A stretch of DNA of 64,000 bases from Thysanoteuthis rhombus (lineage: Eukaryota; Mollusca; Cephalopoda; Oegopsida; Thysanoteuthidae), in NCBI GenBank assembly GCA_963457665.1, contig OY735224.1, positions 53,609,429 to 53,673,428 of the forward strand. Direction: 5' to 3'. The position numbers and the translations under genes were made by a program. Positions within the stretch are counted from its first letter, which is position 1. Every line of letters begins with the position of its first letter. The notes beneath the pieces are model-generated. The model was not told where the DNA came from and ran no database searches. It was given only the letters and a program-made list of their open reading frames with translations. Of the stretch, positions 31,947 through 54,605 are shown in pieces.

Positions 31947-32830
31947 AGAGTTGAGAGGAAATGAGTTGCGATTAGGGAGGGGGAGAGAGATAGATAGTGA
32001 TATACAGAAAGTGATCAAACCCATCATTTCTATTGTCTGTTTTCTCCAATTTTCATTTCACGCCCGCTGGTCATGTCCACTGACCACCTATCCATTCTTA
32101 TCGTGTTATTTCTATGCTTCAACCTTCTGTAACAAGTGATGAAATATTTTTCCATGAACATTATCTCTTTTTGAACGTAGACTCATAACAAAGTATAGAT
32201 TATTTAGCTTTCCTACATAAAATATCAAACATCGTTAAACTTGATAGACTGAAATTCGATTGAAAATTATTATTCAACTATTGAAACTGAAGGTAAGTTC
32301 TCTGCTTAAATTTGATTTTGTGTCCAATATTTTTAATTTCTAATTCAGCAGATATGGAATAGTGAGATTTATTTTTAATTCAATAAATACAATTTAATGT
32401 TATGGTATTGGATAGTTAAATAATTTCTCAAATCTTTAGAATTCTTCTACGCTTTGGAATCAGAATTTAAGATGTACAACTTCTTATGAGGAAAGAAAAT
32501 ACATGAATTCTTTGTATGGTATTCTTGATTATTGGAATAGAGTTTTTCTCTTTCTCTTTTAAAAACTCTCTGATGATGTCAGCTAAATACAATCTTTTAA
32601 TATATGATATTTTAATAAATGGGTCCTAATCAATCTAATCACTTTCAGTCTACACTCTTAACTTTAAGAAATTAATTTTGAATATTTGTATCTGAATAAT
32701 TACTACACCTCTCTCTGTGTTTCTATGCACTGCAATTATTCAACAGCTGACTATTGTATGAAGTTGATATTCATCAGATATATTAGAAAACACACGAGGT
32801 ATCCTTTAGTTAGAAGTTGTTCGGATCAGC
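31947..32830. other. AT-rich stretch next to the satellite junction, no gene seen
   Basis: It starts with a purine-rich run (agggagggggagagagatag). One strong donor-like site, gaaggtaagtt, lies at about 32,288-32,298 on +, but no open exon with a matching acceptor was found. The mirror is 53,722-54,605. The right copy has tgacgtca where this one has tgatgtca (32,577). Confidence 0.6.
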
Positions 32831-33253
32831 GGTTCTTGAGAAATCTAATAAAAATGAATATTTCTCTACAACTCTAATTACATGTCGGTTATTGAAGAGA
32901 AACATAAGCAAACTGACCACTATCTGAATCACCTAGTCTTTTGTAAATATATATATATACATTTGAATTAAAAATTTAGTTTTTGGACATCTTTTGTACG
33001 CATTTCACATGATTGAGAAGAAAATATTTTTCAAGTTAATTTCTATGTAATGTTTCAAATATATTTTTATAGATAACATGCACTAGATGTCAATATATAT
33101 TTCTGCTCAAGGGAAATAAATGATCTGAAATATTTTCATGATTCAAAGAAAAATTAAGTCAATCATCATTTCACATTTTTAAAAAATTGCTCAATCAATT
33201 TTTATTACAATAATGATTACAGATATGTATCAGTTTTTTTTCCTGCTTTCCAG

Positions 33254-33780
33254 ATTGACTAGCTATTCTTCATTCACTGGTGATAACAACCAAGAAACAT
33301 TTAGCTATATCAAAAGTCTAGATTTCAATTTTGATGATGAAGTCTGGGACTACATCTCTGACGATGCCAAAGACTTCATTGGTAATTTCCTCTTGAACAA
33401 CAAAGGGTAAATAGCAGAATTTTATCTGTCTGTACTAAATTTGCCTTTATTTATTCACCGTTTTTTAGTATCAGTGGTTGTACTTGATTGTAATAAATCA
33501 ATAATAAGTCCAATTTTTCATCATATCACGTGTGAAAATGTTTCATAGTATATTGGTACTATATTCCCAAATCTTGTTCAATGAATGCAATGTCGTACTA
33601 AGACTTGATTCAATTATCATTTATTTAATTATAATCAGATAGATAGGTATTTTCAAGATGCAATTTTGTGTTCTATACATCATAATTACAAATCAATTTT
33701 TTTGTTTTTTAGAAAGAATGACCATTGATGATGTGTTGGACCATCGTTTGTTAAATGTTAGTTATCTGCCTCTGTTTTAA
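33254..33780 (+). pseudogene. Titin/MLCK-family kinase C-lobe exons, left arm
   Basis: Exon one follows a good acceptor (ctgctttccag, ending 33,253) and reads LTSYSSFTGDNNQETF, then FNFDDEVWDYISDDAKDFIG. This matches the protein kinase C-lobe of the myosin light chain kinase/titin/twitchin family, where the usual text is LSGLSPF.GDN..ET and ISDDAKDFI. After a ~300-bp intron, exon two (33,713 on) reads RMTIDDVLDHRLLN, matching RMT..E.L.HPWL, then stops at 33,778. Signs of decay: SPF became SSF, HPWL became HRLL, and the obvious donor (33,407) and acceptor (ttttttag, 33,712) join out of frame. An AG four bases further restores the frame by dropping two residues. No N-lobe, HRD, DFG or APE exons were found, so this is a fragment of a muscle-type kinase gene and not a working enzyme. 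Confidence 0.8.
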
Positions 33781-33809
33781 TTTTTAATCAATTGAAGTAA
33801 ACAATACTT

Positions 33810-34556
33810 GGCAAAGTTTAACCTCTGAGTTGTCAAAAAAGGATTATTTGATAACGACTGATTTTCACACACTACTGGATGACGAGAAGTAAACATTTTT
33901 TTTTTTTTGGTACTTGATTTTTTTCTTAAAGTTGATTTTGTGCCAAACTCAAGCTTGATTTAACTTTTTTTATTATATTTTTTATACAAACATTTTTGTG
34001 ATGTTGAAAAAATTAAAAACATCCCAATCTCAAATTTTGATAGCCTAGAGTAGTTCAGAGAAGAGAGAAATCAATCAAAGAAATTTACAGTAAATTTCAA
34101 TTTTATTATTTCTCGACTATTTTGATACAATATAAACAATAGCTCATATATTTCAGAATGAATAACTATGAAATGTCTGTAATATTTCACAGATGAATTA
34201 TGATCTTATAAATAAGTGATCAAATAAATAAATTACATCTTATATTATTATAGTTCAAATTTCTTTATAATCTTGTAAATAATTAGATAAATAAATTATG
34301 ATATTACAGTACACATTGTTGCGGTACTCATATTTCATTATTATCTTGCGAATGATTAAATGGATATATCATGATCTAACAATTCACATATTTTTGTCTA
34401 TTCATTTTATTTAAATTCTGGAAACTCTTTTCCTAATGAAAATGATAATGTATGAAGAAAGGAATATGAGCTTATTTTCAGAACAATCCAGTGCTTTGTG
34501 AAAATCAGTCCTAATCTAGCAATCCATTTTTGACAGCCCAACGGTTAAACTTTGCC
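33810..34556. mobile_element. MITE-like element with 71-bp inverted repeats, left arm
   Basis: 33,810-33,880 (ggcaaagtttaacctctgag ... ctactggat) and 34,486-34,556 read on - (ggcaaagtttaaccgttggg ... cactggat) are inverted repeats of equal length at roughly 80% identity. Between them is AT-rich DNA without an open frame. The short length, lack of coding and terminal inverted repeats suggest a non-autonomous DNA transposon. No target duplication was identified. Confidence 0.5.
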
Positions 34557-35774
34557 CAATTTGCTTTAAGCACCAAGCTAAGCAAAGCTTGATTTGCACT
34601 CTCACCTCCTAAAACTGAGGCTTGGCTCTTTCTTCTGCAAGTCCAAAGTGGTTTGTTTCAATTCAGCTTTTCATGAATAAAATTGTATCCAGATCCTCAT
34701 AAACGTGGGGATTATTTTATTCAATATCTGAAGTACATTTCTTATTTCAAAAAATTGTGTCAAATTAATTTCATTAACAATTCCTCCATCTATTTTGAGC
34801 AAAATCATGCAAATATTAAGACAATGATGAGGATGCAAATATTTTTCATTTAAAATATAGGTGGATATGTTTTAAATTTATGAAAAATATTCAAGTCTGA
34901 GAGTTACCTATGCATTTATTTATTTAAGTACTTGATGATTTATACCTGACTAATGTAAAATAGTAGGTCATTGACATTAGAACTTTGGTACCAAATGAAT
35001 GTTTTCATTTCAATCCCTAATACCAAGATAGTATTACTGATTGATTATAACCAATAAAAATAATGCATAAATAAATAATAAAAATACATAAGCAAATCGA
35101 GCATATTGTATATGTTTTAAATATCAAAGTATCTTTTATAAAAGATAGCTTCCATTAAGCATATTTTAAATTGCAATTCTGGTAGCATATTTCTGCCTGA
35201 AATCAAAGTTTAGCACTAAAAACCTTGGTGTGGTTAAATTACTGATTACCACTATTTATATTATTTGCTTTATGCTTTTACTGACCATGCACTAATTTAT
35301 CCACTATTATGAAACAGCCACAAGAGCCAATGGATTTAAGTTATGTAATTACTTATGAACATATATTAGAAAGTATGCATTTACGGAAATATATGCTTGT
35401 GCTTTTATTGCATTTACACATGATTGAACAGATACATCATTAATAGTTATTTTCTTAAATATCTGATACACAAAGTAATTGTATATTTTTGAATGATGTC
35501 TCTGTATATAGTTTTAGACTTAGATAGAATTTCTTAACACTTTCCAAACCTATCATATTAGATATTCCCGTGCATTTTTGGAAGGAGAGCAGCCTGCCAT
35601 AGATTGTCATGTAAATGATTTTTGAATGAAATACCACCACTAGTAATCACTAAAGAGTAAAATCTAAGGGAGTTAAATCATAAAAATTACAAACTGCTTT
35701 TTTTTCTAATGGCCAACATAAAGCTAGCATTCTAGAGATTATTCACTACAGTGGCACTGAAAGAGGCAGAGCAT
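34557..35774. other. AT-rich non-coding stretch, left arm
   Basis: No open frame with coding character, tRNA or recognisable repeat was seen. It contains a short caagctaagcaaagcttg hairpin-like motif (34,572-34,590) and runs of ATAAATA. The mirror is 50,780-51,997. Confidence 0.5.
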
Positions 35775-35854
35775 GCTTATGTTTCCCTTCAATAACCGAC
35801 ATGTAAGTAGAGTTGTAGAGAAATATTTTTTTATTAGATTTCTCACGAACCAAA

Positions 35855-35873
35855 CTAACCCTAACCCTAACCC
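35855..35873 (-). repeat. Interstitial telomere-like motif, left arm
   Basis: ctaaccctaaccctaaccc, three CCCTAA units on + (TTAGGG on -), immediately outside the inverted repeat ending at 35,851. TTAGGG is the ancestral animal telomere repeat. The tract is too short to be a telomere; it could be an insertion scar or chance. Confidence 0.7.
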
Positions 35874-36879
35874 AGAAAGATGAGAACTGATTGCTGACTG
35901 TTTTAAAGCTTACATATAATTGAAATGTATTTTTGAGAATAAAGCTATTCTGAAATTATTAGAATAACAAGCTTTTGCAAAATAGTGTTTATTATACTAA
36001 GTAAACATCAAAATCTCTTTTGTTTTCAACGCCTTCATAACACAATACACATAGAATAAGACTACTGAAACGCTCATATACATGCATGCACCTGAAAGTA
36101 TATAATAATACATGGCAGAATACTGTACCAATATGAAATGGTCAAATTCAGAATGATAAAACAATGGAATAATATTTCATGAAAAGTGTAAAATTTATTT
36201 TGCAAAATCAGTGATGTGCCTTGTTTCCTTAAAAAATAAGGTGCATTTATAAACATGAATTCTTTCAGTCTACGTAGTTGAATAGTGTTCAGAAAATTAC
36301 CGTTGTAAATGTATGCATAGATTTCAAAGTTGTATTCAAAATAGTAGAACACTGAATATTGAATATTAGCATACCATTCAAAATTATTTTGTTAATGTTA
36401 CTTACTATGTCAGTTGAAGTTGAAGTGATAATAATATAAAAAGTTACAAAGAATCTATAATGAAATTATTCAATAAATAGAGACATGAATTTTCAATTTT
36501 GCTCTCATGTCTTTATCCTCAATTCTTTTCTTAAAACATTCTTTGATAAATCATTTAATTGGATTTTCTTCACTTTTTCTCCTCATCTCATTCGAGATCA
36601 TTTCATTGCTTTTACTTTTCTACCTTTTTTTATCTCTTGTGCATTTCTATGCATAAAATAGGAAATTCTGACTTTCTTTTCTTTATTTTTTTTCTATCAT
36701 TTAGTATATTTGATATGATTATATGATGATTTATGATTCTATCATGAAATTAACATCTTGCATTTGAAAAAAAAAACTGCTGTAAAACTGATTGTCATCT
36801 TCTTTATTTGTATTATCCTGGGAGAAGCTCAAAGAAATCTGGAAAAATTGAACTACCAACAGATAAACACAAAAACTAT
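35874..36879. other. AT-rich non-coding stretch, left arm
   Basis: No supported gene. A frame at 36,758-36,949 encodes a basic-then-hydrophobic start (KKKTAVKLIVIFFICIILG) like a signal peptide, but it has no ATG; its first codon is TTG and no in-frame ATG or clear acceptor lies upstream. The mirror is 49,675-50,680. Confidence 0.5.
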
Positions 36880-37182
36880 TTATATCGTAACAGAAACAAC
36901 AATGTTAATGAAGCTGGCAAAAGGCAGTAGTAATGTGTTTGGTATATGAAAGATAACTTTTTCTGACTTAGGGCTCGATCTTTCTTGATTGATAGCAATC
37001 GTATTCACATAATAACCTCCAACCTGTTCTTTGGCATTAAACACCGTAAGAGTCCGAGAGATATCAAAAATAACTCTCATTGTTTAAGTTAAAATCAAGA
37101 TAGCCCAGTACCCAGTGTCTTTTGCGTTGGAGGTCAGGGATTGCTCAAGCCCTGACCCGTCAGTGCATATGGAGGACGCTGT
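36880..37182 (-). pseudogene. Broken coding exon with one in-frame stop, left arm
   Basis: Mirror of 49,372-49,674; see that entry. The in-frame stop is at 37,084-37,086. The interval is visibly richer in G+C than the DNA around it, which supports former coding use. Confidence 0.5.
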
Positions 37183-37709
37183 CTGAAAAACAGGTTACCA
37201 TGAACTAAGCTCGGTCTCTGTAAAGTAGGGGTCGGTAAAGTGCTCAATCAATACCTGAGGTCCATTGAACTTTTTAGGTCAATCTTTGGCATTCGTATGA
37301 GAAATAAAAAATACATTTTGTTTGTTTTTTAATTCTCTACCTGAATAGAGTTTTTAACGGAGGTTTTGATCTGCAATGTATGTTTATCATAAACTGATCA
37401 CCGAGTTTGCGTCAACCAGAATTCAAGCATGTTTACTTCAATCTTTTATGTATATGGGCTTGGCACTGATTGGGTGGTGGTTAAATAGGAATAAACTCTA
37501 GACCAGGTTTAGGAATCCACAAAACAATTAAGTAATTGGTTCCACAAATGTTCTGTACTGTTCAAAATCACATCGTTCAAGGCCTCGTTACAATTTAATA
37601 TGCGTTTTCTTTTCAGCTTGTATCAAGTTATATCAATTTGTTCTGCAATACCTTAACCTCACTAAATCGATTCAGAGGCTAATTAAAGCCAGATTCACCA
37701 TTGACGGTA
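37183..37709. other. Non-coding stretch between broken exon and minisatellite, left arm
   Basis: AT-rich, no gene seen. The mirror is 48,845-49,371. Confidence 0.5.
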
Positions 37710-38846
37710 TCCCTGAATATATCTGGTGAATCTAGATTTTTCTAGATGTTTTTTTCTTGAATTTTAGATGTAAAAAACTAAGATGTAATATACCTGTACA
37801 TATCTGGTGAATCTACATGTTTCTAGATGTTTTCAATCGAATTTGAAATGTAAGTCTGCAAATGTATTTGGTAAAATATCCTTGTATATACCTGGTGAAT
37901 CTACATGTTTCTAGAAGTTTTTATTTATTGTATTTTAGGTGTAAGCCCAACAGATGAATTTGGTAAAATATCCTTGTATATACCTGGTGAATTTAGATGT
38001 TTTTAGAGGTTTTTCTATTGGATTTAGATGTAAGCATGCAAATGAATTTTGTAAAATATACCTATGTATACATGGAGAGTCTAGATGTTTTTAGATGTGA
38101 GCCTGCAAATGAATTTGGTGAAATATTCCCGTACACACCTGGTGAATCTAGATGTTTCTAGATGTTTTCAATTGAATTTTAGATGTCAGCCTACAAATGA
38201 ATTTGGCAAAATATCCTTGTATATACCTAGGGAATTTAGATGTTTTTAGATGTTTTTCTATTCAATCTTACATGTATGCATGCAAATGAATTTGGTAAAA
38301 TATACCTATGTATACCTGGTGAGTCTAGATGTTTTTAGATGTTTTTCTATTGGATTTTAGATGTAAGCGTGCAAATGAATTTGGTAAAATATCCTTGTAA
38401 ATACCTATTTAATCTAGATGTTTTTAGATGTTTTTCCATTGGATTTTAGATGTAAACGTGCAAATGAACTTGGTAAAATATCCCTGTATATACATGGTGA
38501 ATCTAAATGTTTCTAGATATTTTTCCATCAAATTTTAGATGCGAGCCTACGAACGAATTTGGCAAAATGGTCCTGTACATATCTGATAAATTTAGATGTT
38601 TTTTATATGTTTTTATTATGGATTTTAGATGTAAGCCTGCAAATGAATTCGGAAAGATATATCTGTATACATCTAGTGAATCTAGATGTTTCTGGATGTT
38701 TTTTATCATTATTGAATTTTAGATGTAAGCCTACGAATGAATTTGGTCAAATATCCCTGTATATACTTTGTGAATCTAGATGCTTTTAGATGTTTTTTCT
38801 AAATTAGATCTTAGATGTGAGCCTGTAAATGAATTTGGCAATACTG
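37710..38846 (+). repeat. ~90-bp minisatellite, about 12 units, left arm
   Basis: Units are built from gcaaatgaatttggtaaaat, atccttgtatatacctggtg, aatctagatgtttctagatg and ttttagatgtaagcctg. The aatgaatttgg anchor recurs near 37,861, 37,951, 38,038, 38,105, 38,194, 38,282, 38,372, 38,461, 38,550, 38,640, 38,732 and 38,828. Spacing is 88-92 bp, with one short 67-bp unit. Units are diverged, so expansion is not recent. The last unit ends in ttggcaatactg, which resembles the hAT-like end at 41,220. Short open frames across it are repeat shadows. Confidence 0.92.
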
Positions 38847-38921
38847 GCTTGGAGTAATTGGCTTCTCTTTTTACTCTATTTTTCTCTTTCTTTCTGTGCT
38901 TATTTGTGTCATTTTACTTAC

Positions 38922-39017
38922 TTGTATTTTCTCTGAAAAAAAACGAAACATATTTTTTCTCTTTCTCTCCGCGTGTTGATTGTCAGGAAGAGAATAAATT
39001 TTACCAACTGTTTTCTC
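38922..39017 (-). CDS. 96-nt exon-like block, left arm
   Basis: Mirror of 47,537-47,632; see that entry. Both splice sites are conserved here. Confidence 0.35.
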
Positions 39018-39137
39018 CTGGAATTGAATAAAAATGCAGAAATAACAACAACAAACTGAAATTTGTATTAAAATAGTTTTATTTGTATAAATTGGCACCA
39101 ATGGTGCGTTTAAGTATGCATATCCATGAAGTATGTA

Positions 39138-39298
39138 TACACGCCAACCAACACACACCGCACACGCACACGAACCCATGCATACTCCTTTACATTCACG
39201 CACACAAACACGCACACAATCACACATATGCACAAGCAGACATAACACGTACAACAACACACACACGCACACCCACAATCTCACACACAAGTATAGGG
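39138..39298. repeat. CA-rich simple sequence, left arm
   Basis: Degenerate (CA)n and ACACGCAC repeats. Long frames rich in His/Thr or Cys/Val in this interval are read-through of the simple repeat. The mirror is 47,256-47,416. Confidence 0.85.
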
Positions 39299-39387
39299 CG
39301 ACACCAAGCCGTGGTGTAATACAGAAGCTAGTCTCACCGACATATACTGAAGTGAGATCAAGCCCCACGGTGTCCCACAAGTGTGGC

Positions 39388-39456
39388 TCTATGCCTATGT
39401 GTGTATGTGTGTAAATGTGTGTGTTGTATGTATGTATGCGTGTATGTATGTATGTA

Positions 39457-39495
<39 letters not shown>

Positions 39496-39642
39496 CCACC
39501 CACCTACCTATCTCGGCCCGTTTTATAGATCCCTGTTCATATCTATTGTATATATGTATGTATGTATGCATGTATGTATCTCAGTCTGTTCACATCTATT
39601 TCTGATCATATCTATCTATCAATCTATCTAGCTGTCTGTTCA

Positions 39643-39678
<36 letters not shown>

Positions 39679-39785
39679 AGTGTCTGTGTTCACATCTATC
39701 TACCTAGCAACCTATCTACTTACCTAGCCACCCAGATACCTACCCAACCTACCTACCAATCTATCTACCAATCTAGCTACCTAGC
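39388..39785. repeat. Compound microsatellite (TG/TATG/TATC/CTAC), left arm
   Basis: In order: TG/TATG mixture, a pure (TG)16 tract at 39,461-39,492, (TATG)n near 39,550-39,580, (TATC)n near 39,643-39,678, then degenerate CTAC/CTAT units to 39,785. The (TG)16 against (AC)14 in the other arm is the 4-bp shift in arm symmetry. Confidence 0.92.
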
Positions 39786-40118
39786 GTTGGAATTGAACTC
39801 ACTACAGTATGATTGTCAATGAGACGAAGCTTGCTAACATTGTCCCATGGTGAAGCGTCGCTAACATCTATACATGTGCGTATAATTGTGTGTGTTTGTG
39901 CGCATGGAAGTACATGCGTGTGTGCTCATGCATATAAGATTTGTGTGTTTAGTGTACTTAGTGTGTGTGTGTGTGCGCATATACACATACTATGGATATA
40001 GTCTTAAAAGTCGAAAAAGTCGAAAAAGTGGGGAAAAAAGCGGAAAAAAAAACCCCGTCTGGGATGCATGAGTATGTCAGTGACCAATTGCTGGGCTGAC
40101 ATACAAGAGGCAAATATT
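39786..40118. other. Short non-coding stretch, left arm
   Basis: On - it contains gtgagttcaattccaacgc (mirror near 46,756-46,775), which loosely recalls a tRNA B box (GTTCRANNCC), so a SINE remnant is possible. A direct repeat aaagtcgaaaaagtcgaaaa lies near 40,008-40,030. No gene. The mirror is 46,440-46,772. Confidence 0.4.
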
Positions 40119-40327
40119 GCCGTTTTGGCCGCTTTGGCCGCTTTGGCCGTTTTGGCCGTTTTGCAACTAGACCTAGCTCCTTTTGGGTGCTAAATCGAGT
40201 TACGTTTTGTTGGCCGTTTTGCAACTAGACCTAGCTCCTTTTGGGTGCTAAATCGAGTTACGTTTTGTTGGCCGTTTTGCAACTAGACCTAGCTCCTTTT
40301 GGGTGCTAAATCGAGTTACGTTTTGTT
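40119..40327 (+). repeat. 9-bp and 58-bp tandem repeats, left arm
   Basis: Five 9-bp units (gccgttttg/gccgctttg) at 40,119-40,162 lead into three near-identical 58-bp units at 40,154, 40,212 and 40,270. Each unit has ggccgttttgcaactagacc, tagctccttttgggtgc and taaatcgagttacgttttg. Each starts with the same ggccgtttt as the 9-bp repeat, which suggests slippage began there. In the gene model below they fall in the 3' part of the transcript. Confidence 0.95.
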
Positions 40328-40389
40328 GCAAGGCATTGAACTTATGCATCCCTTGTCACAGGCTGGCTTCTTCATTTGGTGAAGATATT

Positions 40390-40723
40390 TCATTCTGCAA
40401 AAATAAAAGACAAGAAGAAATGTCAGAATAATGTTTGATCATCAAGGACAAAAACAAGAGAAAAAAGTTGAATCATTTTAAGCCATCAGTTCTCGATTCA
40501 AAATGGCGAAATTACAATGTTCATGGCCTCAAAGTTATGAAGCGAGGCAAAATATATTTAATTCATTTTAATAATTTAATAATTTGATTAGTCCGACACA
40601 GGAAAAAAGTAGATAATAGAGGTACTTACGATTTGTTTTCAAATCACTTGCTCTGCCTGAGATATTTTTTGCAGAACTTTTTTTGCATTTGAACCTGTTT
40701 GTCTTAGGTTCATTGTTCTGCAT
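40390..40723 (-). CDS. Small two-exon gene model, 32-residue basic peptide, left arm
   Basis: Mirror of 45,835-46,168. Exon one is 40,630-40,723; exon two starts at 40,394. ATG, donor, acceptor and stop are all conserved and no difference was seen. The two copies are transcribed divergently, away from the centre. Confidence 0.4.
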
Positions 40724-40770
40724 CAGTCTGGAAACACCAAATGAATCAAAGTAGTCCCGGAAACGGCTTG

Positions 40771-40799
40771 TATTTATAGACACATACCTGATGACGTCA
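40771..40799 (-). promoter_or_regulatory. CRE plus TATA core promoter, left arm
   Basis: Mirror of 45,759-45,787 with no difference: TATA at 40,771-40,778 and CRE at 40,792-40,799. The two promoters point away from the palindrome centre. Confidence 0.55.
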
Positions 40800-41156
40800 T
40801 CATGATGTCATAATTGAAGTCCCGTGATAATAACTTCTAATGTTTTGCTATAATAACTTCTAATGTCACGTGATAATATCTTCATTATGATGTCATAATG
40901 GATTTTGACGTATTTGTAATTTGAAAAAAAAAAAAAAAAACGAACCCAAAAATCAAGAAAAAAATCACAAATTACTAAAAAATTAAATGTAACTTCAATT
41001 TCAACATTTGTTTTTATTAAAATATTACTTAAAAATATTACCGTTGTTATCATTATCATTATTGTTTTTATCATCATCATTACCATTATTGATATTATTA
41101 GTATTTTTAAATGAATGAAAATACTATTTAATCAAAAACCGTCTAAAAAGTATTTT

Positions 41157-41909: not shown

Positions 41910-41912
41910 CAG

Positions 41913-43876: not shown

Positions 43877-43983
43877 TGAGAAATACCAAAATGCGCCAAA
43901 AGTCAACTCCAAGGTCAGTCTTGGTCAAGGTCAAATTGACAGCCCATAATATTTCCAAATTGCGACAAGATGACTATCATTCG

Positions 43984-44645: not shown

Positions 44646-44648
44646 CTG

Positions 44649-45337: not shown

Positions 45338-45401
45338 CAGTGTTGCCAATTTAGATGTTTATCATCTAGATTTGGATGTTTTTGGTTGCACTAGATGAGA
45401 G
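45338..45401 (+). mobile_element. hAT-like terminal motif, right arm
   Basis: Mirror of 41,157-41,220. Confidence 0.4.
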
Positions 45402-45758
45402 AAAATACTTTTTAGACGGTTTTTGATTAAATAGTATTTTCATTCATTTAAAAATACTAATAATATCAATAATGGTAATGATGATGATAAAAACAATAAT
45501 GATAATGATAACAACGGTAATATTTTTAAGTAATATTTTAATAAAAACAAATGTTGAAATTGAAGTTACATTTAATTTTTTAGTAATTTGTGATTTTTTT
45601 CTTGATTTTTGGGTTCGTTTTTTTTTTTTTTTTTCAAATTACAAATACGTCAAAATCCATTATGACATCATAATGAAGATATTATCACGTGACATTAGAA
45701 GTTATTATAGCAAAACATTAGAAGTTATTATCACGGGACTTCAATTATGACATCATGA

Positions 45759-45787
45759 TGACGTCATCAGGTATGTGTCTATAAATA
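45759..45787 (+). promoter_or_regulatory. CRE plus TATA core promoter, right arm
   Basis: A perfect cAMP-response element tgacgtca (45,759-45,766) lies 13 bp before a good TATA box, tataaata (45,780-45,787). An E-box tcacgtga is at 45,685-45,692, and two near-identical atgatgtcataat-type motifs lie further upstream (read on - in the left arm). The CRE-TATA distance is like that of compact animal promoters of germline genes driven by CREM/CREB. A start site would be expected near 45,810-45,815. This is a sequence match only. Confidence 0.55.
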
Positions 45788-45834
45788 CAAGCCGTTTCCG
45801 GGACTACTTTGATTCATTTGGTGTTTCCAGACTG

Positions 45835-46168
45835 ATGCAGAACAATGAACCTAAGACAAACAGGTTCAAATGCAAAAAAAGTTCTGCAAAAAATATCTCA
45901 GGCAGAGCAAGTGATTTGAAAACAAATCGTAAGTACCTCTATTATCTACTTTTTTCCTGTGTCGGACTAATCAAATTATTAAATTATTAAAATGAATTAA
46001 ATATATTTTGCCTCGCTTCATAACTTTGAGGCCATGAACATTGTAATTTCGCCATTTTGAATCGAGAACTGATGGCTTAAAATGATTCAACTTTTTTCTC
46101 TTGTTTTTGTCCTTGATGATCAAACATTATTCTGACATTTCTTCTTGTCTTTTATTTTTGCAGAATGA
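45835..46168 (+). CDS. Small two-exon gene model, 32-residue basic peptide, right arm
   Basis: The first ATG after the predicted start site (45,835) opens 31 codons that end at a perfect donor, aatc|gtaagt (45,929). A 235-bp intron closes with a strong pyrimidine tract and acceptor, tcttttatttttgcag (46,163). Joined, the frame gains one codon and stops at 46,166-46,168. The peptide begins MQNNEPKTNRFKCKKSSAK and has 6 Lys and 2 Arg against 2 acidic residues. I recognise no family. A different frame of exon two is also open (MKYLHQMKKPACDKGC...), so this could instead be a non-coding or differently phased transcript. An upstream ATG at 45,775 lies before the TATA box. Promoter, splice sites and short basic product recall protamine-like germline genes, but this is inference. 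Confidence 0.4.
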
Positions 46169-46230
46169 AATATCTTCACCAAATGAAGAAGCCAGCCTGT
46201 GACAAGGGATGCATAAGTTCAATGCCTTGC

Positions 46231-46439
46231 AACAAAACGTAACTCGATTTAGCACCCAAAAGGAGCTAGGTCTAGTTGCAAAACGGCCAACAAAACGTAA
46301 CTCGATTTAGCACCCAAAAGGAGCTAGGTCTAGTTGCAAAACGGCCAACAAAACGTAACTCGATTTAGCACCCAAAAGGAGCTAGGTCTAGTTGCAAAAC
46401 GGCCAAAACGGCCAAAGCGGCCAAAGCGGCCAAAACGGC
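46231..46439 (-). repeat. 9-bp and 58-bp tandem repeats, right arm
   Basis: Mirror of 40,119-40,327, with the same three units and no difference seen. They follow exon two of the small gene model. Confidence 0.95.
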
Positions 46440-46772
46440 AATATTTGCCTCTTGTATGTCAGCCCAGCAATTGGTCACTGACATACTCATGCATCCCAGA
46501 CGGGGTTTTTTTTTCCGCTTTTTTCCCCACTTTTTCGACTTTTTCGACTTTTAAGACTATATCCATAGTATGTGTATATGCGCACACACACACACACTAA
46601 GTACACTAAACACACAAATCTTATATGCATGAGCACACACGCATGTACTTCCATGCGCACAAACACACACAATTATACGCACATGTATAGATGTTAGCGA
46701 CGCTTCACCATGGGACAATGTTAGCAAGCTTCGTCTCATTGACAATCATACTGTAGTGAGTTCAATTCCAAC
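46440..46772. other. Short non-coding stretch, right arm
   Basis: Mirror of 39,786-40,118, with a weak tRNA-B-box-like motif near 46,756-46,775. Confidence 0.4.
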
Positions 46773-46879
46773 GCTAGGTAGCTAGATTGGTAGATAGATT
46801 GGTAGGTAGGTTGGGTAGGTATCTGGGTGGCTAGGTAAGTAGATAGGTTGCTAGGTAGATAGATGTGAACACAGACACT

Positions 46880-46915
<36 letters not shown>

Positions 46916-47062
46916 TGAACAGACAGCTAGATAGATTGATAGATAGATATGATCAGAAATAGATGTGAACAGACTGAGATACATACATGCATACATACAT
47001 ACATATATACAATAGATATGAACAGGGATCTATAAAACGGGCCGAGATAGGTAGGTGGGTGG

Positions 47063-47097
<35 letters not shown>

Positions 47098-47166
47098 TAC
47101 ATACATACATACACGCATACATACATACAACACACACATTTACACACATACACACATAGGCATAGA
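46773..47166. repeat. Compound microsatellite, right arm
   Basis: Mirror of 39,388-39,785, with (AC)14 at 47,065-47,092. Confidence 0.92.
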
Positions 47167-47255
47167 GCCACACTTGTGGGACACCGTGGGGCTTGATCTC
47201 ACTTCAGTATATGTCGGTGAGACTAGCTTCTGTATTACACCACGGCTTGGTGTCG

Positions 47256-47416
47256 CCCTATACTTGTGTGTGAGATTGTGGGTGTGCGTGTGTGTGTTGT
47301 TGTACGTGTTATGTCTGCTTGTGCATATGTGTGATTGTGTGCGTGTTTGTGTGCGTGAATGTAAAGGAGTATGCATGGGTTCGTGTGCGTGTGCGGTGTG
47401 TGTTGGTTGGCGTGTA
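47256..47416. repeat. TG-rich simple sequence, right arm
   Basis: Mirror of 39,138-39,298. It underlies most of a 170-codon frame on + that should not be taken as a gene. Confidence 0.85.
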
Positions 47417-47536
47417 TACATACTTCATGGATATGCATACTTAAACGCACCATTGGTGCCAATTTATACAAATAAAACTATTTTAATACAAATTTCAGTT
47501 TGTTGTTGTTATTTCTGCATTTTTATTCAATTCCAG

Positions 47537-47632
47537 GAGAAAACAGTTGGTAAAATTTATTCTCTTCCTGACAATCAACACGCGGAGAGAAAGAGAAAAA
47601 ATATGTTTCGTTTTTTTTCAGAGAAAATACAA
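47537..47632 (+). CDS. 96-nt exon-like block, right arm
   Basis: A strong acceptor (tttttattcaattccag, ending 47,536) and a strong donor (acaa|gtaagt, 47,633) enclose exactly 32 codons that are open in the zero-phase frame: EKTVGKIYSLPDNQ, then AERKRKNMFRFFSEKIQ. A second frame is open too, so the phase is uncertain. It lies on the same strand and 1.4 kb downstream of the CRE/TATA gene model, so it could be a later exon, but exon one and this block do not join in frame directly. The protein is not recognised. It may also be a chance exon in intronic DNA. Confidence 0.35.
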
Positions 47633-47707
47633 GTAAGTAAAATGACACAAATAAGCACAGAAAGAAAGAGAAAAATAGAGTAAAAAGAGAAGCCAATTAC
47701 TCCAAGC

Positions 47708-48844
47708 CAGTATTGCCAAATTCATTTACAGGCTCACATCTAAGATCTAATTTAGAAAAAACATCTAAAAGCATCTAGATTCACAAAGTATATACAGGGA
47801 TATTTGACCAAATTCATTCGTAGGCTTACATCTAAAATTCAATAATGATAAAAAACATCCAGAAACATCTAGATTCACTAGATGTATACAGATATATCTT
47901 TCCGAATTCATTTGCAGGCTTACATCTAAAATCCATAATAAAAACATATAAAAAACATCTAAATTTATCAGATATGTACAGGACCATTTTGCCAAATTCG
48001 TTCGTAGGCTCGTATCTAAAATTTGATGGAAAAATATCTAGAAACATTTAGATTCACCATGTATATACAGGGATATTTTACCAAGTTCATTTGCACGTTT
48101 ACATCTAAAATCCAATGGAAAAACATCTAAAAACATCTAGATTAAATAGGTATTTACAAGGATATTTTACCAAATTCATTTGCACGCTTACATCTAAAAT
48201 CCAATAGAAAAACATCTAAAAACATCTAGACTCACCAGGTATACATAGGTATATTTTACCAAATTCATTTGCATGCATACATGTAAGATTGAATAGAAAA
48301 ACATCTAAAAACATCTAAATTCCCTAGGTATATACAAGGATATTTTGCCAAATTCATTTGTAGGCTGACATCTAAAATTCAATTGAAAACATCTAGAAAC
48401 ATCTAGATTCACCAGGTGTGTACGGGAATATTTCACCAAATTCATTTGCAGGCTCACATCTAAAAACATCTAGACTCTCCATGTATACATAGGTATATTT
48501 TACAAAATTCATTTGCATGCTTACATCTAAATCCAATAGAAAAACCTCTAAAAACATCTAAATTCACCAGGTATATACAAGGATATTTTACCAAATTCAT
48601 CTGTTGGGCTTACACCTAAAATACAATAAATAAAAACTTCTAGAAACATGTAGATTCACCAGGTATATACAAGGATATTTTACCAAATACATTTGCAGAC
48701 TTACATTTCAAATTCGATTGAAAACATCTAGAAACATGTAGATTCACCAGATATGTACAGGTATATTACATCTTAGTTTTTTACATCTAAAATTCAAGAA
48801 AAAAACATCTAGAAAAATCTAGATTCACCAGATATATTCAGGGA
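47708..48844 (-). repeat. ~90-bp minisatellite, about 12 units, right arm
   Basis: Mirror of 37,710-38,846 with the same unit number and the same short unit. One substitution relative to the left arm was seen (cgtatc here, cgcatc on the left, at about 48,011-48,016, mirror of 38,527). Confidence 0.92.
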
Positions 48845-49371
48845 TACCGTCAATGGTGAATCTGGCTTTAATTAGCCTCTGAATCGATTTAGTGAGGTTA
48901 AGGTATTGCAGAACAAATTGATATAACTTGATACAAGCTGAAAAGAAAACGCATATTAAATTGTAACGAGGCCTTGAACGATGTGATTTTGAACAGTACA
49001 GAACATTTGTGGAACCAATTACTTAATTGTTTTGTGGATTCCTAAACCTGGTCTAGAGTTTATTCCTATTTAACCACCACCCAATCAGTGCCAAGCCCAT
49101 ATACATAAAAGATTGAAGTAAACATGCTTGAATTCTGGTTGACGCAAACTCGGTGATCAGTTTATGATAAACATACATTGCAGATCAAAACCTCCGTTAA
49201 AAACTCTATTCAGGTAGAGAATTAAAAAACAAACAAAATGTATTTTTTATTTCTCATACGAATGCCAAAGATTGACCTAAAAAGTTCAATGGACCTCAGG
49301 TATTGATTGAGCACTTTACCGACCCCTACTTTACAGAGACCGAGCTTAGTTCATGGTAACCTGTTTTTCAG
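48845..49371. other. Non-coding stretch upstream of the broken exon, right arm
   Basis: Mirror of 37,183-37,709. It ends in the pyrimidine tract and AG that open the broken exon. Confidence 0.5.
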
Positions 49372-49674
49372 ACAGCGTCCTCCATATGCACTGACGGGTC
49401 AGGGCTTGAGCAATCCCTGACCTCCAACGCAAAAGACACTGGGTACTGGGCTATCTTGATTTTAACTTAAACAATGAGAGTTATTTTTGATATCTCTCGG
49501 ACTCTTACGGTGTTTAATGCCAAAGAACAGGTTGGAGGTTATTATGTGAATACGATTGCTATCAATCAAGAAAGATCGAGCCCTAAGTCAGAAAAAGTTA
49601 TCTTTCATATACCAAACACATTACTACTGCCTTTTGCCAGCTTCATTAACATTGTTGTTTCTGTTACGATATAA
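49372..49674 (+). pseudogene. Broken coding exon with one in-frame stop, right arm
   Basis: A good acceptor (taacctgtttttcag, ending 49,371) opens a frame reading TASSICTDGSGLEQSLTSN, then DTGYWAILIL, one stop codon (taa, 49,468), then MRVIFDISRTLTVFNAKEQV and GGYYVNTIAI. The frame is otherwise open for about 100 codons, has mixed amino acid use, and the stop is a single interruption. The arrangement TDG...GYWAI...(V/I)..I....VFN faintly resembles extracellular discoidin-like (F5/8C) beta-sandwich domains of invertebrate lectins, but I would not assign a family on this. No clear donor was chosen. The left-arm copy has the same stop. Confidence 0.5.
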
Positions 49675-50680
49675 ATAGTTTTTGTGTTTATCTGTTGGTA
49701 GTTCAATTTTTCCAGATTTCTTTGAGCTTCTCCCAGGATAATACAAATAAAGAAGATGACAATCAGTTTTACAGCAGTTTTTTTTTTCAAATGCAAGATG
49801 TTAATTTCATGATAGAATCATAAATCATCATATAATCATATCAAATATACTAAATGATAGAAAAAAAATAAAGAAAAGAAAGTCAGAATTTCCTATTTTA
49901 TGCATAGAAATGCACAAGAGATAAAAAAAGGTAGAAAAGTAAAAGCAATGAAATGATCTCGAATGAGATGAGGAGAAAAAGTGAAGAAAATCCAATTAAA
50001 TGATTTATCAAAGAATGTTTTAAGAAAAGAATTGAGGATAAAGACATGAGAGCAAAATTGAAAATTCATGTCTCTATTTATTGAATAATTTCATTATAGA
50101 TTCTTTGTAACTTTTTATATTATTATCACTTCAACTTCAACTGACATAGTAAGTAACATTAACAAAATAATTTTGAATGGTATGCTAATATTCAATATTC
50201 AGTGTTCTACTATTTTGAATACAACTTTGAAATCTATGCATACATTTACAACGGTAATTTTCTGAACACTATTCAACTACGTAGACTGAAAGAATTCATG
50301 TTTATAAATGCACCTTATTTTTTAAGGAAACAAGGCACATCACTGATTTTGCAAAATAAATTTTACACTTTTCATGAAATATTATTCCATTGTTTTATCA
50401 TTCTGAATTTGACCATTTCATATTGGTACAGTATTCTGCCATGTATTATTATATACTTTCAGGTGCATGCATGTATATGAGCGTTTCAGTAGTCTTATTC
50501 TATGTGTATTGTGTTATGAAGGCGTTGAAAACAAAAGAGATTTTGATGTTTACTTAGTATAATAAACACTATTTTGCAAAAGCTTGTTATTCTAATAATT
50601 TCAGAATAGCTTTATTCTCAAAAATACATTTCAATTATATGTAAGCTTTAAAACAGTCAGCAATCAGTTCTCATCTTTCT
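49675..50680. other. AT-rich non-coding stretch, right arm
   Basis: Mirror of 35,874-36,879. A 92-codon frame at 50,202-50,480 starts with GTG and is rich in Ile, Phe and Tyr, as expected of AT-rich chance frames. Confidence 0.5.
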
Positions 50681-50699
50681 GGGTTAGGGTTAGGGTTAG
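50681..50699 (+). repeat. Interstitial telomere-like motif, right arm
   Basis: gggttagggttagggttag, the mirror of 35,855-35,873. Confidence 0.7.
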
Positions 50700-50779
50700 T
50701 TTGGTTCGTGAGAAATCTAATAAAAAAATATTTCTCTACAACTCTACTTACATGTCGGTTATTGAAGGGAAACATAAGC

Positions 50780-51997
50780 ATGCTCTGCCTCTTTCAGTGC
50801 CACTGTAGTGAATAATCTCTAGAATGCTAGCTTTATGTTGGCCATTAGAAAAAAAAGCAGTTTGTAATTTTTATGATTTAACTCCCTTAGATTTTACTCT
50901 TTAGTGATTACTAGTGGTGGTATTTCATTCAAAAATCATTTACATGACAATCTATGGCAGGCTGCTCTCCTTCCAAAAATGCACGGGAATATCTAATATG
51001 ATAGGTTTGGAAAGTGTTAAGAAATTCTATCTAAGTCTAAAACTATATACAGAGACATCATTCAAAAATATACAATTACTTTGTGTATCAGATATTTAAG
51101 AAAATAACTATTAATGATGTATCTGTTCAATCATGTGTAAATGCAATAAAAGCACAAGCATATATTTCCGTAAATGCATACTTTCTAATATATGTTCATA
51201 AGTAATTACATAACTTAAATCCATTGGCTCTTGTGGCTGTTTCATAATAGTGGATAAATTAGTGCATGGTCAGTAAAAGCATAAAGCAAATAATATAAAT
51301 AGTGGTAATCAGTAATTTAACCACACCAAGGTTTTTAGTGCTAAACTTTGATTTCAGGCAGAAATATGCTACCAGAATTGCAATTTAAAATATGCTTAAT
51401 GGAAGCTATCTTTTATAAAAGATACTTTGATATTTAAAACATATACAATATGCTCGATTTGCTTATGTATTTTTATTATTTATTTATGCATTATTTTTAT
51501 TGGTTATAATCAATCAGTAATACTATCTTGGTATTAGGGATTGAAATGAAAACATTCATTTGGTACCAAAGTTCTAATGTCAATGACCTACTATTTTACA
51601 TTAGTCAGGTATAAATCATCAAGTACTTAAATAAATAAATGCATAGGTAACTCTCAGACTTGAATATTTTTCATAAATTTAAAACATATCCACCTATATT
51701 TTAAATGAAAAATATTTGCATCCTCATCATTGTCTTAATATTTGCATGATTTTGCTCAAAATAGATGGAGGAATTGTTAATGAAATTAATTTGACACAAT
51801 TTTTTGAAATAAGAAATGTACTTCAGATATTGAATAAAATAATCCCCACGTTTATGAGGATCTGGATACAATTTTATTCATGAAAAGCTGAATTGAAACA
51901 AACCACTTTGGACTTGCAGAAGAAAGAGCCAAGCCTCAGTTTTAGGAGGTGAGAGTGCAAATCAAGCTTTGCTTAGCTTGGTGCTTAAAGCAAATTG
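50780..51997. other. AT-rich non-coding stretch, right arm
   Basis: Mirror of 34,557-35,774; nothing supported. Confidence 0.5.
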
Positions 51998-52743
51998 GGC
52001 AAAGTTTAACCGTTGGGCTGTCAAAAATGGATTGCTAGATTAGGACTGATTTTCACAAAGCACTGGATTGTTCTGAAAATAAGCTCATATTCCTTTCTTC
52101 ATACATTATCATTTTCATTAGGAAAAGAGTTTCCAGAATTTAAATAAAATGAATAGACAAAAATATGTGAATTGTTAGATCATGATATATCCATTTAATC
52201 ATTCGCAAGATAATAATGAAATATGAGTACCGCAACAATGTGTACTGTAATATCATAATTTATTTATCTAATTATTTACAAGATTATAAAGAAATTTGAA
52301 CTATAATAATATAAGATGTAATTTATTTATTTGATCACTTATTTATAAGATCATAATTCATCTGTGAAATATTACAGACATTTCATAGTTATTCATTCTG
52401 AAATATATGAGCTATTGTTTATATTGTATCAAAATAGTCGAGAAATAATAAAATTGAAATTTACTGTAAATTTCTTTGATTGATTTCTCTCTTCTCTGAA
52501 CTACTCTAGGCTATCAAAATTTGAGATTGGGATGTTTTTAATTTTTTCAACATCACAAAAATGTTTGTATAAAAAATATAATAAAAAAAGTTAAATCAAG
52601 CTTGAGTTTGGCACAAAATCAACTTTAAGAAAAAAATCAAGTACCAAAAAGGAAAAATGTTTACTTCTCGTCATCCAGTAGTGTGTGAAAATCAGTCGTT
52701 ATCAAATAATCCTTTTTTGACAACTCAGAGGTTAAACTTTTCC
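51998..52743. mobile_element. MITE-like element with 71-bp inverted repeats, right arm
   Basis: Mirror of 33,810-34,556, with inverted repeats at 51,998-52,068 and 52,673-52,743. The T-run present at 33,896-33,908 is broken by cc here. Confidence 0.5.
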
Positions 52744-52752
52744 AAGTATTGT

Positions 52753-53298
52753 TTACTTCAATTGATTAAAAATAAACAGAGGCAGATAACTAACATTTAA
52801 CAAACGATGGTCCAACACATCATCAATGGTCATTCTTTCTAAAAAACAAAAAAAATTGATTTGTAATTATGATGTATAGAACACAAAATTGCATCTTGAA
52901 AATACCTATCTATCTGATTATAATCAAATAAATGATAATTGAATCAAGTCTTAGTACGACATTGCATTCATTGAACAAGATTTGGGAATATAGTACCAAT
53001 ATACTATGAAACATTTTCACACGTGATATGATGGAAAATTGGACTTATTATTGATTTATTACAATCAAGTACAACCACTGATACTAAAAAACGGTGAATA
53101 AATAAAGGCAAATTTAGTACAGACAGATAAAATTCTGCTATTTACCCTTTGTTGTTCAAGAGGAAATTACCAATGAAGTCTTTGGCATCGTCAGAGATGT
53201 AGTCCCAGACTTCATCATCAAAATTGAAATCTAGACTTTTGATATAGCTAAATGTTTCTTGGTTGTTATCACCAGTGAATGAAGAATAGCTAGTCAAT
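52753..53298 (-). pseudogene. Titin/MLCK-family kinase C-lobe exons, right arm
   Basis: Mirror copy of 33,254-33,780. Exon one is 53,144-53,298, identical in protein sequence to the left copy. Exon two starts at 52,838. A 2-bp deletion near 52,775 removes the stop used on the left, so this frame runs on to a stop at 52,753. The same splice-phase defect is present, so it predates the arm duplication or was spread by conversion. Confidence 0.8.
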
Positions 53299-53721
53299 CT
53301 GGAAAGCAGGAAAAAAAACTGATACATATCTGTAATCATTATTGTAATAAAAATTGATTGAGCAATTTTTTAAAAATGTGAAATGATGATTGACTTAATT
53401 TTTCTTTGAATCATGAAAATATTTCAGATCATTTATTTCCCTTGAGCAGAAATATATATTGACATCTAGTGCATGTTATCTATAAAAATATATTTGAAAC
53501 ATTACATAGAAATTAACTTGAAAAATATTTTCTTCTCAATCATGTGAAATGCGTACAAAAGATGTCCAAAAACTAAATTTTTAATTCAAATGTATATATA
53601 TATATTTACAAAAGACTAGGTGATTCAGATAGTGGTCAGTTTGCTTATGTTTCTCTTCAATAACCGACATGTAATTAGAGTTGTAGAGAAATATTCATTT
53701 TTATTAGATTTCTCAAGAACC

Positions 53722-54605
53722 GCTGATCCGAACAACTTCTAACTAAAGGATACCTCGTGTGTTTTCTAATATATCTGATGAATATCAACTTCATACAATA
53801 GTCAGCTGTTGAATAATTGCAGTGCATAGAAACACAGAGAGAGGTGTAGTAATTATTCAGATACAAATATTCAAAATTAATTTCTTAAAGTTAAGAGTGT
53901 AGACTGAAAGTGATTAGATTGATTAGGACCCATTTATTAAAATATCATATATTAAAAGATTGTATTTAGCTGACGTCATCAGAGAGTTTTTAAAAGAGAA
54001 AGAGAAAAACTCTATTTCAATAATCAAGAATACCATACAAAGAATTCATGTATTTTCTTTCCTCATAAGAAGTTGTACATCTTAAATTCTGATTCCAAAG
54101 CGTAGAAGAATTCTAAAGATTTGAGAAATTATTTAACTATCCAATACCATAACATTAAATTGTATTTATTGAATTAAAAATAAATCTCACTATTCCATAT
54201 CTGCTGAATTAGAAATTAAAAATATTGGACACAAAATCAAATTTAAGCAGAGAACTTACCTTCAGTTTCAATAGTTGAATAATAATTTTCAATCGAATTT
54301 CAGTCTATCAAGTTTAACGATGTTTGATATTTTATGTAGGAAAGCTAAATAATCTATACTTTGTTATGAGTCTACGTTCAAAAAGAGATAATGTTCATGG
54401 AAAAATATTTCATCACTTGTTACAGAAGGTTGAAGCATAGAAATAACACGATAAGAATGGATAGGTGGTCAGTGGACATGACCAGCGGGCGTGAAATGAA
54501 AATTGAAGAAAACAGACAATAGAAATGATGGGTTTGATCACTTTCTGTATATCACTATCTATCTCTCTCCCCCTCCCTAATCGCAACTCATTTCCTCTCG
54601 ACTCT
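53722..54605. other. AT-rich stretch next to the right satellite junction
   Basis: Mirror of 31,947-32,830. It carries a tgacgtca at 53,971-53,978 that is tgatgtca in the left arm. No gene seen. Confidence 0.55.

What the first reader, a model, noticed from the sequence alone, without database searches (positions are those of the whole stretch)
31947..54605. A 22.7-kb near-perfect palindrome sits between two oppositely oriented satellite arrays
The whole window is an inverted repeat: satellite (+), arm, 1.4-kb centre, arm, satellite (-). Arms of 10.6 kb are almost identical and contain gene fragments and a possible gene. Known parallels are ampliconic palindromes of animal Y/W chromosomes and inverted duplications at isochromosome or B-chromosome breakpoints. 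Which of these applies, if any, is inference.
Basis: partly seen in the sequence, partly recalled or inferred. Interest (0 to 1): 0.88.

Follow-up and report, generated by a model that had tools for sequence, protein, structure and literature searches.

The report
Self-copying palindrome near squid chromosome end
Near one end of a squid chromosome, a block of repeated chromosome-end DNA sits as two mirror-image copies that appear to keep overwriting each other, so they stay almost identical; other copies of the block show the same pattern, which makes squid chromosome ends a test case for a process best known from sex chromosomes.

Summary
The palindrome is real. Arms 31947-42682 and 43875-54605 are 99.72% identical around a 1,192-bp centre. 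The symmetry stops where the satellites begin: the flanking 181-bp arrays point in opposite directions but are not in register.

The window lies about 0.5 Mb from the end of a 54-Mb contig (C29) of a squid whose hemocyanin best matches Todarodes pacificus. The arms belong to a subtelomeric segmental duplication: 22 of 22 listed larger outer-arm hits on chromosome-sized contigs lie within 520 kb of an end, on 10 of them. Other copies also have inverted arms. In the six contigs where both arms could be compared, arms of one contig differ at 0-2 of 1,127 sites and arms of different contigs at 2-10; the true pairing is the unique best of 720. That is locus-by-locus gene conversion.

At C29 at least two exchanges completed the palindrome: both arms carry left-type outer sequence and end in one satellite junction not found elsewhere. 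Best explanation: recombination between pre-existing inverted repeats copied the left arm, with satellite, onto the other side; arm-to-arm conversion followed. A Y/W-specific, B-chromosome or isochromosome origin is not supported. No reads could be examined; the direction of some steps is inferred.

The parts
4..31946 (+). 181-bp satellite array, 175 copies, ending at the left arm inside a monomer
   Evidence: Tandem Repeats Finder; continues at least 10 kb further left (L029)
31947..42682 (+). Left palindrome arm: a piece of a subtelomeric segmental duplication
   Evidence: 99.72% identical to the right arm; copies near other contig ends
42683..43874 (.). Centre (spacer), 1,192 bp; its part 42808-43874, with the right inner arm, is present at 98-100% in seven other contigs; contains a direct 85.6% copy (43015-43572) of arm stretch 41906-42453
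43875..54605 (-). Right palindrome arm
   Evidence: in C43 and C6 the corresponding arm matches only to window position 48846
54606..64000 (-). 181-bp satellite array in inverse orientation, starting at the same monomer phase as the left junction; changes to a uniform 190-bp type at about 64.3-64.5 kb, just outside the window
34000..42486 (+). Homogenised core of the arm: 1 substitution and 2 indels against the right arm in 8.5 kb
37708..38841 (+). About 88-89-bp tandem repeat in the left arm; part of it (37700-38675) is diagnostic: left and right types differ by 18-19% as aligned in C43 and C6, and both arms here are left type
47713..48846 (-). The same tandem repeat in the right arm, left type
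33252..33407 (+). Twitchin-like protein kinase fragment (left copy)
   Evidence: window 33234-33407 matches PDB 1koa twitchin, E 2.6e-7; 50 genomic matches
53145..53300 (-). Twitchin-like protein kinase fragment (right copy)
   Evidence: G000:C29:53662573-53662728
35855..35873 (+). Short interstitial CCCTAA-type run in the arm
   Evidence: read

Best explanation
It is a subtelomeric segmental duplication (duplicon) of a squid whose copies carry an inner pair of inverted arms around a short spacer, and whose arms at each locus are kept alike by gene conversion. On C29 the pair was enlarged to a near-complete 22.7-kb palindrome. Shown: the arm belongs to a duplicon near many chromosome ends; inverted arms around the same spacer exist elsewhere; arms within a contig are more alike than arms of different contigs; both C29 arms are left type outside; both end in one satellite junction not found elsewhere in this genome. 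Inferred: a break on the right side was repaired through the pre-existing inverted repeat (single-strand annealing between sister chromatids, or fold-back and break-induced replication), copying the left arm, the junction and perhaps the roughly 9.8 kb of 181-bp satellite that now follows it, after which the end joined a 190-bp satellite array. Repeated arm-to-arm conversion then erased differences in the 8.5-kb core, but not at the edges or in the faster-changing satellites.
For: Location: C29:53609429-53673428 of 54156971; 22 of 22 listed larger outer-arm matches on chromosome-sized contigs within 520 kb of an end, on 10 of them (40 of 2,263 candidates scored); C6 reads telomere, satellite, duplicon. 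Pre-existing inverted pair: C43 3.9 kb and C6 3.5 kb of inverted arm at about 95% around about 2.5 kb. Concerted evolution: 0-2 within against 2-10 between contigs in 1,127 columns; correct pairing the unique best of 720; 12 of 12 arms nearest to their own partner; 14 of 18 variable columns have both arms agreeing in all six contigs, none separates L from R. In C43 and C6 the neighbouring tandem stretch differs 18-19% between L and R as aligned but only 0.5-0.7% between the two contigs, so the pair is older than its spread. C29 completion: both arms L type at 131 of 132 diagnostic sites in 37700-38700 (sites); the junction query matches whole at 2 of 75 places, both on C29 (40 of 489 candidates scored, next best stops 3 bases into the arm); in C43 and C6 the duplicon runs on past this point. 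Edge pattern: 9 of 10 substitutions in the outer 2.05 kb, p = 3e-6. Satellite type switch at about 64.3-64.5 kb. Inverted repeats with 1-kb spacers give inverted dimers in yeast (PMC6103520); human fold-back duplications have a single-copy spacer and inverted homology (PMC3907307).
Against: No read-level evidence. The satellite next to the right arm is not in register with the left array, so a copied satellite must have been reshuffled, or came otherwise; it is no closer to the left array than to the C29 contig end. Both C29 arms also carry an inner stretch (41630-42486) that C43 and C6 have only on the right side, so a single left-to-right copying event is not enough; its direction is unresolved. 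Homogenisation is not complete everywhere: in C6 the two arms differ at 16 of 1,400 sites in 38676-40100, most of them below 38971. C29 ends in satellite without a telomere.
Confidence: 0.72

Rival explanations
1. Assembly artefact: reads of one arm were used twice, or polishing equalised the two arms, so that the near-perfect identity is not in the animal.
For: No reads were available. The core has 1 substitution in 8.5 kb, and C29 ends without a telomere.
Against: The two arms differ where a duplicated contig would not (9 substitutions and 3 indels in the outer 2 kb, 11 substitutions in the inner 196 bp). Their satellites are different sequences. Inverted arms around the same centre occur in five other contigs of the six-contig test, with contig-specific variants on both arms. 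There are no gaps in the window.
Confidence: 0.12
2. One recent event only: the C29 palindrome was made in one step (sister-chromatid inverted dimer or fold-back) and there is no continuing conversion.
For: The junction, the left-type outer arm and the single spacer fit a one-step inverted duplication, as in PMC3907307 and PMC6103520.
Against: Substitutions are strongly clustered at the edges (p = 3e-6), which a single age does not give. Other contigs show the same within-locus identity without the completed palindrome.
Confidence: 0.2
3. Ampliconic palindrome specific to a sex chromosome (or a B chromosome), selected to keep genes alive by arm-to-arm conversion.
For: Length and identity meet the palindrome definition used for ape sex chromosomes (PMC11168930), and arm conversion is seen.
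Against: The duplicon is on 10 chromosome-sized contigs, and C29 is 54 Mb long. The only gene-like content found is a kinase fragment with 0-1 synonymous and up to 8 non-synonymous changes between six copies. Sex linkage of C29 itself was not tested.
Confidence: 0.05
4. The full palindrome is the ancestral form and the copies at other chromosome ends are eroded derivatives.
For: An interstitial copy on C36 has two arms of at least 2.2 kb at 99.5%; direction of the inner stretch is unresolved.
Against: The satellite junction was found only on C29, while the duplicon runs on past that point in C43 and C6 and in a second tandem unit of C43. In the listed matches seven of seven other near-identical copies lack 42000-42807 on the left side.
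Confidence: 0.1

Closest known systems
Subterminal heterochromatic caps with segmental-duplication spacers in chimpanzee, bonobo and gorilla (PMC12758386, passages read)
   Same: Satellite blocks at chromosome ends interrupted by duplicated spacer segments that occur on many non-homologous ends
   Different: 181/190-bp satellite instead of the 32-bp ape satellite; here the duplicon is an inverted pair converting within each locus. In that paper's main text the terms 'inverted', 'palindrom' and 'gene conversion' occur 0 times
Ampliconic palindromes of mammalian X and Y chromosomes (PMC11168930, passages read)
   Same: Arms over 8 kb with at least 98% identity, a spacer, and arm-to-arm gene conversion
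   Different: Subtelomeric and on many chromosomes; no evident functional gene; at C29 flanked by satellite on both sides
Fold-back inverted duplications of human chromosome ends (PMC3907307, passages read) and inverted dimers by annealing of inverted repeats in yeast (PMC6103520, abstract and passages read)
   Same: Single-copy spacer between inverted copies; inverted homology flanking the spacer in the unrearranged copies
   Different: A feature of a reference assembly in which conversion has continued; the distal end is satellite in the assembly, no telomere seen
Palindromes formed after telomere loss in yeast (PMC4981268, abstract and start of introduction read)
   Same: Inverted duplication near a chromosome end
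   Different: Experimental, in cells without telomere maintenance; no telomere crisis is shown here

Membership tests
Large palindrome as defined for ape sex chromosomes | Arms of at least 8 kb, identity at least 98%, spacer at most 500 kb (PMC11168930) | tested here: met
   10.73 kb, 99.72%, 1.19 kb
Large palindrome as defined for ape sex chromosomes | Less than 80% repetitive content | not tested
   No repeat library for this genome; the arm itself is a multi-copy duplicon
Ampliconic palindrome of a sex chromosome | Arm-to-arm gene conversion | tested here: met
Ampliconic palindrome of a sex chromosome | Confined to a sex chromosome | tested here: inconclusive
   The duplicon is on 10 chromosome-sized contigs; whether C29 itself is sex-linked could not be tested
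Ampliconic palindrome of a sex chromosome | Functional multicopy genes in the arms | tested here: inconclusive
   4 of 4 translations without a Pfam match; kinase fragment shows no purifying selection in 6 of 50 copies
Subterminal satellite cap with duplicated spacers | Satellite next to the telomere, interrupted by segmental duplications shared by non-homologous ends | tested here: met
   C6: telomere 2501-4042, satellite 4051-7725, duplicon; C43 against C6 99.0% over 13.5 kb. Seen in full on this one end
Subterminal satellite cap with duplicated spacers | Heterochromatic and methylated satellite with less methylated spacers | not testable with these tools
   No methylation data
Fold-back or inverted-repeat-mediated inverted duplication | Single-copy spacer that is also present in unrearranged copies | tested here: met
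   42808-43874 of the centre present, with the right inner arm, in 7 other contigs at 98-100%
Fold-back or inverted-repeat-mediated inverted duplication | Inverted homology flanking the spacer before the event | tested here: met
   C43 3.9 kb, C6 3.5 kb at about 95%
Fold-back or inverted-repeat-mediated inverted duplication | Loss of the original distal sequence and new end | tested here: inconclusive
   The 19.4 kb read distal to the right arm (window to 64000 and L030) is all satellite, without the distal duplicon of C43 and C6; the true end of C29 is not assembled
Isochromosome or whole-arm inverted duplication | Mirror symmetry continuing along the arm | tested here: not met
   Symmetry stops at the satellites; right array turns into a different satellite type

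The most novel reading that the evidence does not exclude
Squid subtelomeres carry a self-renewing palindrome system: an inverted-repeat duplicon that has spread over many chromosome ends, is homogenised locus by locus by arm-to-arm conversion, and now and then grows by inverted-repeat-mediated copying into the flanking satellite, thereby switching satellite orientation and helping to rebuild chromosome ends.
Probability: 0.25. Interest if true: 0.75.

Novelty: new variant of a known kind. Interest (0 to 1): 0.5.

Why it matters
Arm-to-arm conversion of large palindromes is mostly discussed for sex chromosomes (my reading of the papers listed). Here the same signature appears in several copies of one subtelomeric duplicon in a mollusc, so conversion within loci and exchange between loci can be separated in one genome. 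It also gives a concrete case of how inverted repeats might turn satellite arrays round at chromosome ends.

Tried and rejected
Satellite register: tested monomer by monomer and rejected. In one search the random left-right control averaged 0.886 (SD 0.117), lowered by monomers that were cut wrongly; one search repeats the test with better cutting. The right array was also tested for special likeness to the left array and showed none over the other 181-bp block tested. RNA families over 31000-56000 at gathering thresholds: 0 matches. Pfam on four translations: 0 of 4. Functional kinase gene: 6 copies compared, 0-1 synonymous and up to 8 non-synonymous differences, so not supported, though only 3 of 50 genomic matches have a stop inside. 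C43's opposed satellite blocks (71-82 kb and 90-100 kb): no inverted repeat was found in the spacer between them, so opposed satellites do not always mean a palindrome. C12 and C241 were dropped from the six-contig test because only one arm was recovered from each locus. Literature: the searches showed no paper that I recognised as being about cephalopod subtelomeric palindromes; several listings were capped (for example 15 of 100, 10 of 245), and most listed papers were seen only as titles and abstract starts.

Failures: one search had a syntax error, one search stopped on an empty set; one search replaced both.
Full report
OBSERVATION. Self-comparison of the non-satellite part gives one long inverted repeat: 31947-42682 against 54605-43875, 10,738 columns, 99.72% identity, 21 mismatches and 5 gap openings. 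The centre is 1,192 bp. A 181-bp satellite fills 4-31946 on the plus strand and 54606-64000 on the minus strand. Both arms meet the satellite at the same point of the monomer. The window has no N.

The satellite arrays are not mirror copies. From the junctions outwards, 50 mirror pairs of monomers are 0.915 alike on average (first ten 0.919); shifting the register by -10 to +23 monomers gives 0.913-0.922. An earlier, cruder test agrees. The right array is mixed 181/190 bp up to about 64.3-64.5 kb, then switches to uniform 189/190-bp monomers. The near block on the right is of the left array's type (mean best identity of 40 monomers 0.957-0.962) rather than of the adjoining 190-bp type (0.899), but it is equally close to the 181-bp block at the end of C29 (0.959).

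WHERE IT IS. The window is G000:C29:53609429-53673428 in a genome of 2.73 Gb and 514 contigs. C29 is 54,156,971 bases long, so the palindrome lies about 0.5 Mb from its end. The contig lengths that I saw fall with contig number, from C1 94.6 Mb to C48 30.5 Mb, and C49 has 0.74 Mb; I treat C1-C48 as chromosomes. The organism is a squid or a close relative. A hemocyanin unit on C32 (L033) matches one unit of PDB 6r83 with 682 bits over 342 residues; the best unit of the next chain listed, 8trz, has 405 bits. 6r83 is Todarodes pacificus hemocyanin (PMC6503924, passages). Decapodiforms are given about 46 chromosomes (PMC12682272, passages). The species was not identified.

WHAT THE ARM IS. A search with the outer 2.5 kb of the arm scored 40 of 2,263 candidates and listed 90 matches. 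I kept the 45 of more than about 250 bases and dropped 45 shorter fragments. Of the 45, 22 lie on C1-C48, on 10 of them, and 22 of 22 are within 520 kb of an end; 23 lie on small contigs. C6 starts, after 2.5 kb of N, with a CCCTAA array (2501-4042), then a 190-bp relative of the satellite, then the duplicon. C43 and C6 share long stretches of this block, 13.5 kb at 99.0% among them. A 36-base telomere pattern has 13,360 forward and 11,291 reverse matches in the genome. The arm is therefore part of a subtelomeric segmental duplication. Against a strictly terminal location: the centre search also lists an interstitial copy on C36 (32.9 Mb of 48.8), one at 82% on C31, and weaker or shorter matches inside other contigs such as C33, C7, C42 and C16, which I take for dispersed repeats without having tested it.

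THE INVERTED PAIR IS OLDER THAN THE C29 PALINDROME. Seven other contigs (C43, C451, C325, C241, C463, C6, C12) contain 42808 to about 44595, that is most of the centre plus right inner arm, at 98-100%. In C43 and C6 these are followed by the left arm, with 3.9 and 3.5 kb of inverted arm at about 95%. There the right arm matches only to window position 48846, and the left arm runs on, past the point where C29 has satellite, into other duplicon sequence.

ARMS CONVERT EACH OTHER, LOCUS BY LOCUS. Eight loci were returned; in six both arms are available over 40500-41629 (C29, C325, C43, C451, C463, C6; C12 and C241 gave one arm each and were dropped). In 1,127 columns the arms of one contig differ by 0, 0, 2, 1, 1 and 0; left and right arms of different contigs differ by 2-10, mean 6.0. 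The true pairing has the smallest sum of all 720 pairings, uniquely, and each of the 12 arms is nearest to its own partner. Of 18 variable columns, 14 show both arms agreeing in all six contigs, 4 have a change in one arm only, and none separates left arms from right arms. In C43 and C6 the neighbouring tandem stretch (37700-38675) differs 18-19% between left and right, as aligned, but only 0.5-0.7% between the two contigs: the pair existed before the block spread, and the adjoining stretch was equalised afterwards. Equalising is not complete everywhere: in 38676-40100 the arms of C43 differ at 0 of 1,414 sites, those of C6 at 16 of 1,400, most of them next to the tandem stretch. C36 adds an interstitial case: arms of at least 2.2 kb at 99.5%, about 2% from C29.

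HOW C29 BECAME A FULL PALINDROME. At 131 of 132 diagnostic sites in 37700-38700 both C29 arms are left type; at the other both have a third base. So the outer right arm of C29 is a copy of a left arm. The 200-base satellite-arm junction is matched whole at 2 of 75 listed places, both on C29 (40 of 489 candidates scored; the next best match stops 3 bases into the arm). The junction was thus probably made once and then duplicated with the arm. Conversely, 41630-42486 is present in both C29 arms but only in the right arm of C43 and C6, and in the listed matches seven of seven other copies lack 42000-42807 on the left; at least two exchanges are needed, and the direction of this one is open. I infer that a break on the right side was repaired through the inverted repeat. 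In yeast, inverted repeats with a 1-kb spacer mainly give inverted dimers (PMC6103520, abstract and passages). In human inverted duplications, 21 of 21 sequenced junctions had a single-copy spacer, and inverted homology suggested fold-back (PMC3907307, passages). Telomere loss can also trigger palindromes in yeast (PMC4981268, abstract). The roughly 9.8-kb block of 181-bp satellite on the right may be the copied stretch, reshuffled since; this is inference.

AGE PATTERN. Of the 10 substitutions between 31947 and 42486, 9 are in the outer 2.05 kb (p = 3e-6 under uniformity). Of the 9, three are private to the left and five to the right arm against C43, C6 and C450, one is mixed. The 8.5-kb core has 1 substitution and 2 indels, one of them in a microsatellite. 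The innermost 196 bp differ at 11 sites, where the right arm equals C43. A converting core with freely diverging edges explains this; a single age does not.

GENE CONTENT. 33234-33407 encodes a twitchin-like kinase fragment (1koa, E 2.6e-7). The genome search listed 50 matches, 3 with a stop inside: by my count 21 lie within 520 kb of an end of a chromosome-sized contig (the left end, or an end whose position is known), 20 on small contigs, and 9 elsewhere or on contigs whose length I did not see. Between six copies there are 0-1 synonymous and up to 8 non-synonymous differences, so I take it as non-functional, with modest confidence. Rfam over 31000-56000 and Pfam on four translations gave nothing.

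ARTEFACT. I could not look at reads. Against an artefact speak the different edges of the arms, the different satellites, and contig-specific variants on both arms elsewhere. Equalising by polishing cannot be excluded for the core.

COMPARISON. The setting is most like the ape subterminal caps, satellite with duplicated spacers shared between non-homologous ends (PMC12758386, passages); that main text does not contain 'inverted', 'palindrom' or 'gene conversion'. The behaviour is like sex-chromosome palindromes (PMC11168930, passages), without evidence of sex linkage. The likely origin is like fold-back or inverted-dimer events.

Noticed in passing
G000:C36:32886501-32891900 (L057): An interstitial copy, 16 Mb from the nearest end, is itself a palindrome with arms of at least 2.2 kb at 99.5%; perhaps a trace of an old end fusion or an insertion.
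   Followed up: partly
G000:C450:157480-172807: Inverted outer-arm copies on a small contig, without a listed match to the whole centre; a second, different inverted arrangement.
   Followed up: partly
window 33252-33407 and 50 listed genomic places: Twitchin-like kinase fragment amplified largely at chromosome ends and on small contigs, with more non-synonymous than synonymous changes in six copies.
   Followed up: partly
G000:C29:53.599-54.157 Mb and 0.54-1.07 Mb: Satellite near both ends of C29. On the right, the places seen alternate in orientation: plus, palindrome, minus, plus near 53.83 Mb, minus at the contig end.
   Followed up: no
G000:C25:56608286-56626269: Nine tyrosinase/hemocyanin-domain matches with the same score at about 2.18-kb spacing, suggesting a hemocyanin gene with a recently amplified unit.
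   Followed up: no
window 41558-41629 and 42743-42814: A 72-bp inverted repeat; part of the stretch between its copies (42487-42742) lies in inverted orientation at the corresponding place of C43 and C6.
   Followed up: partly
C43:71726-100000 (L016-L018): Two satellite blocks in opposite orientation around a 7.8-kb spacer in which no inverted repeat was found.
   Followed up: partly
G000 C1-C48: Apparently 48 chromosome-sized contigs, against about 46 chromosomes given for squids and cuttlefish in PMC12682272.
   Followed up: no
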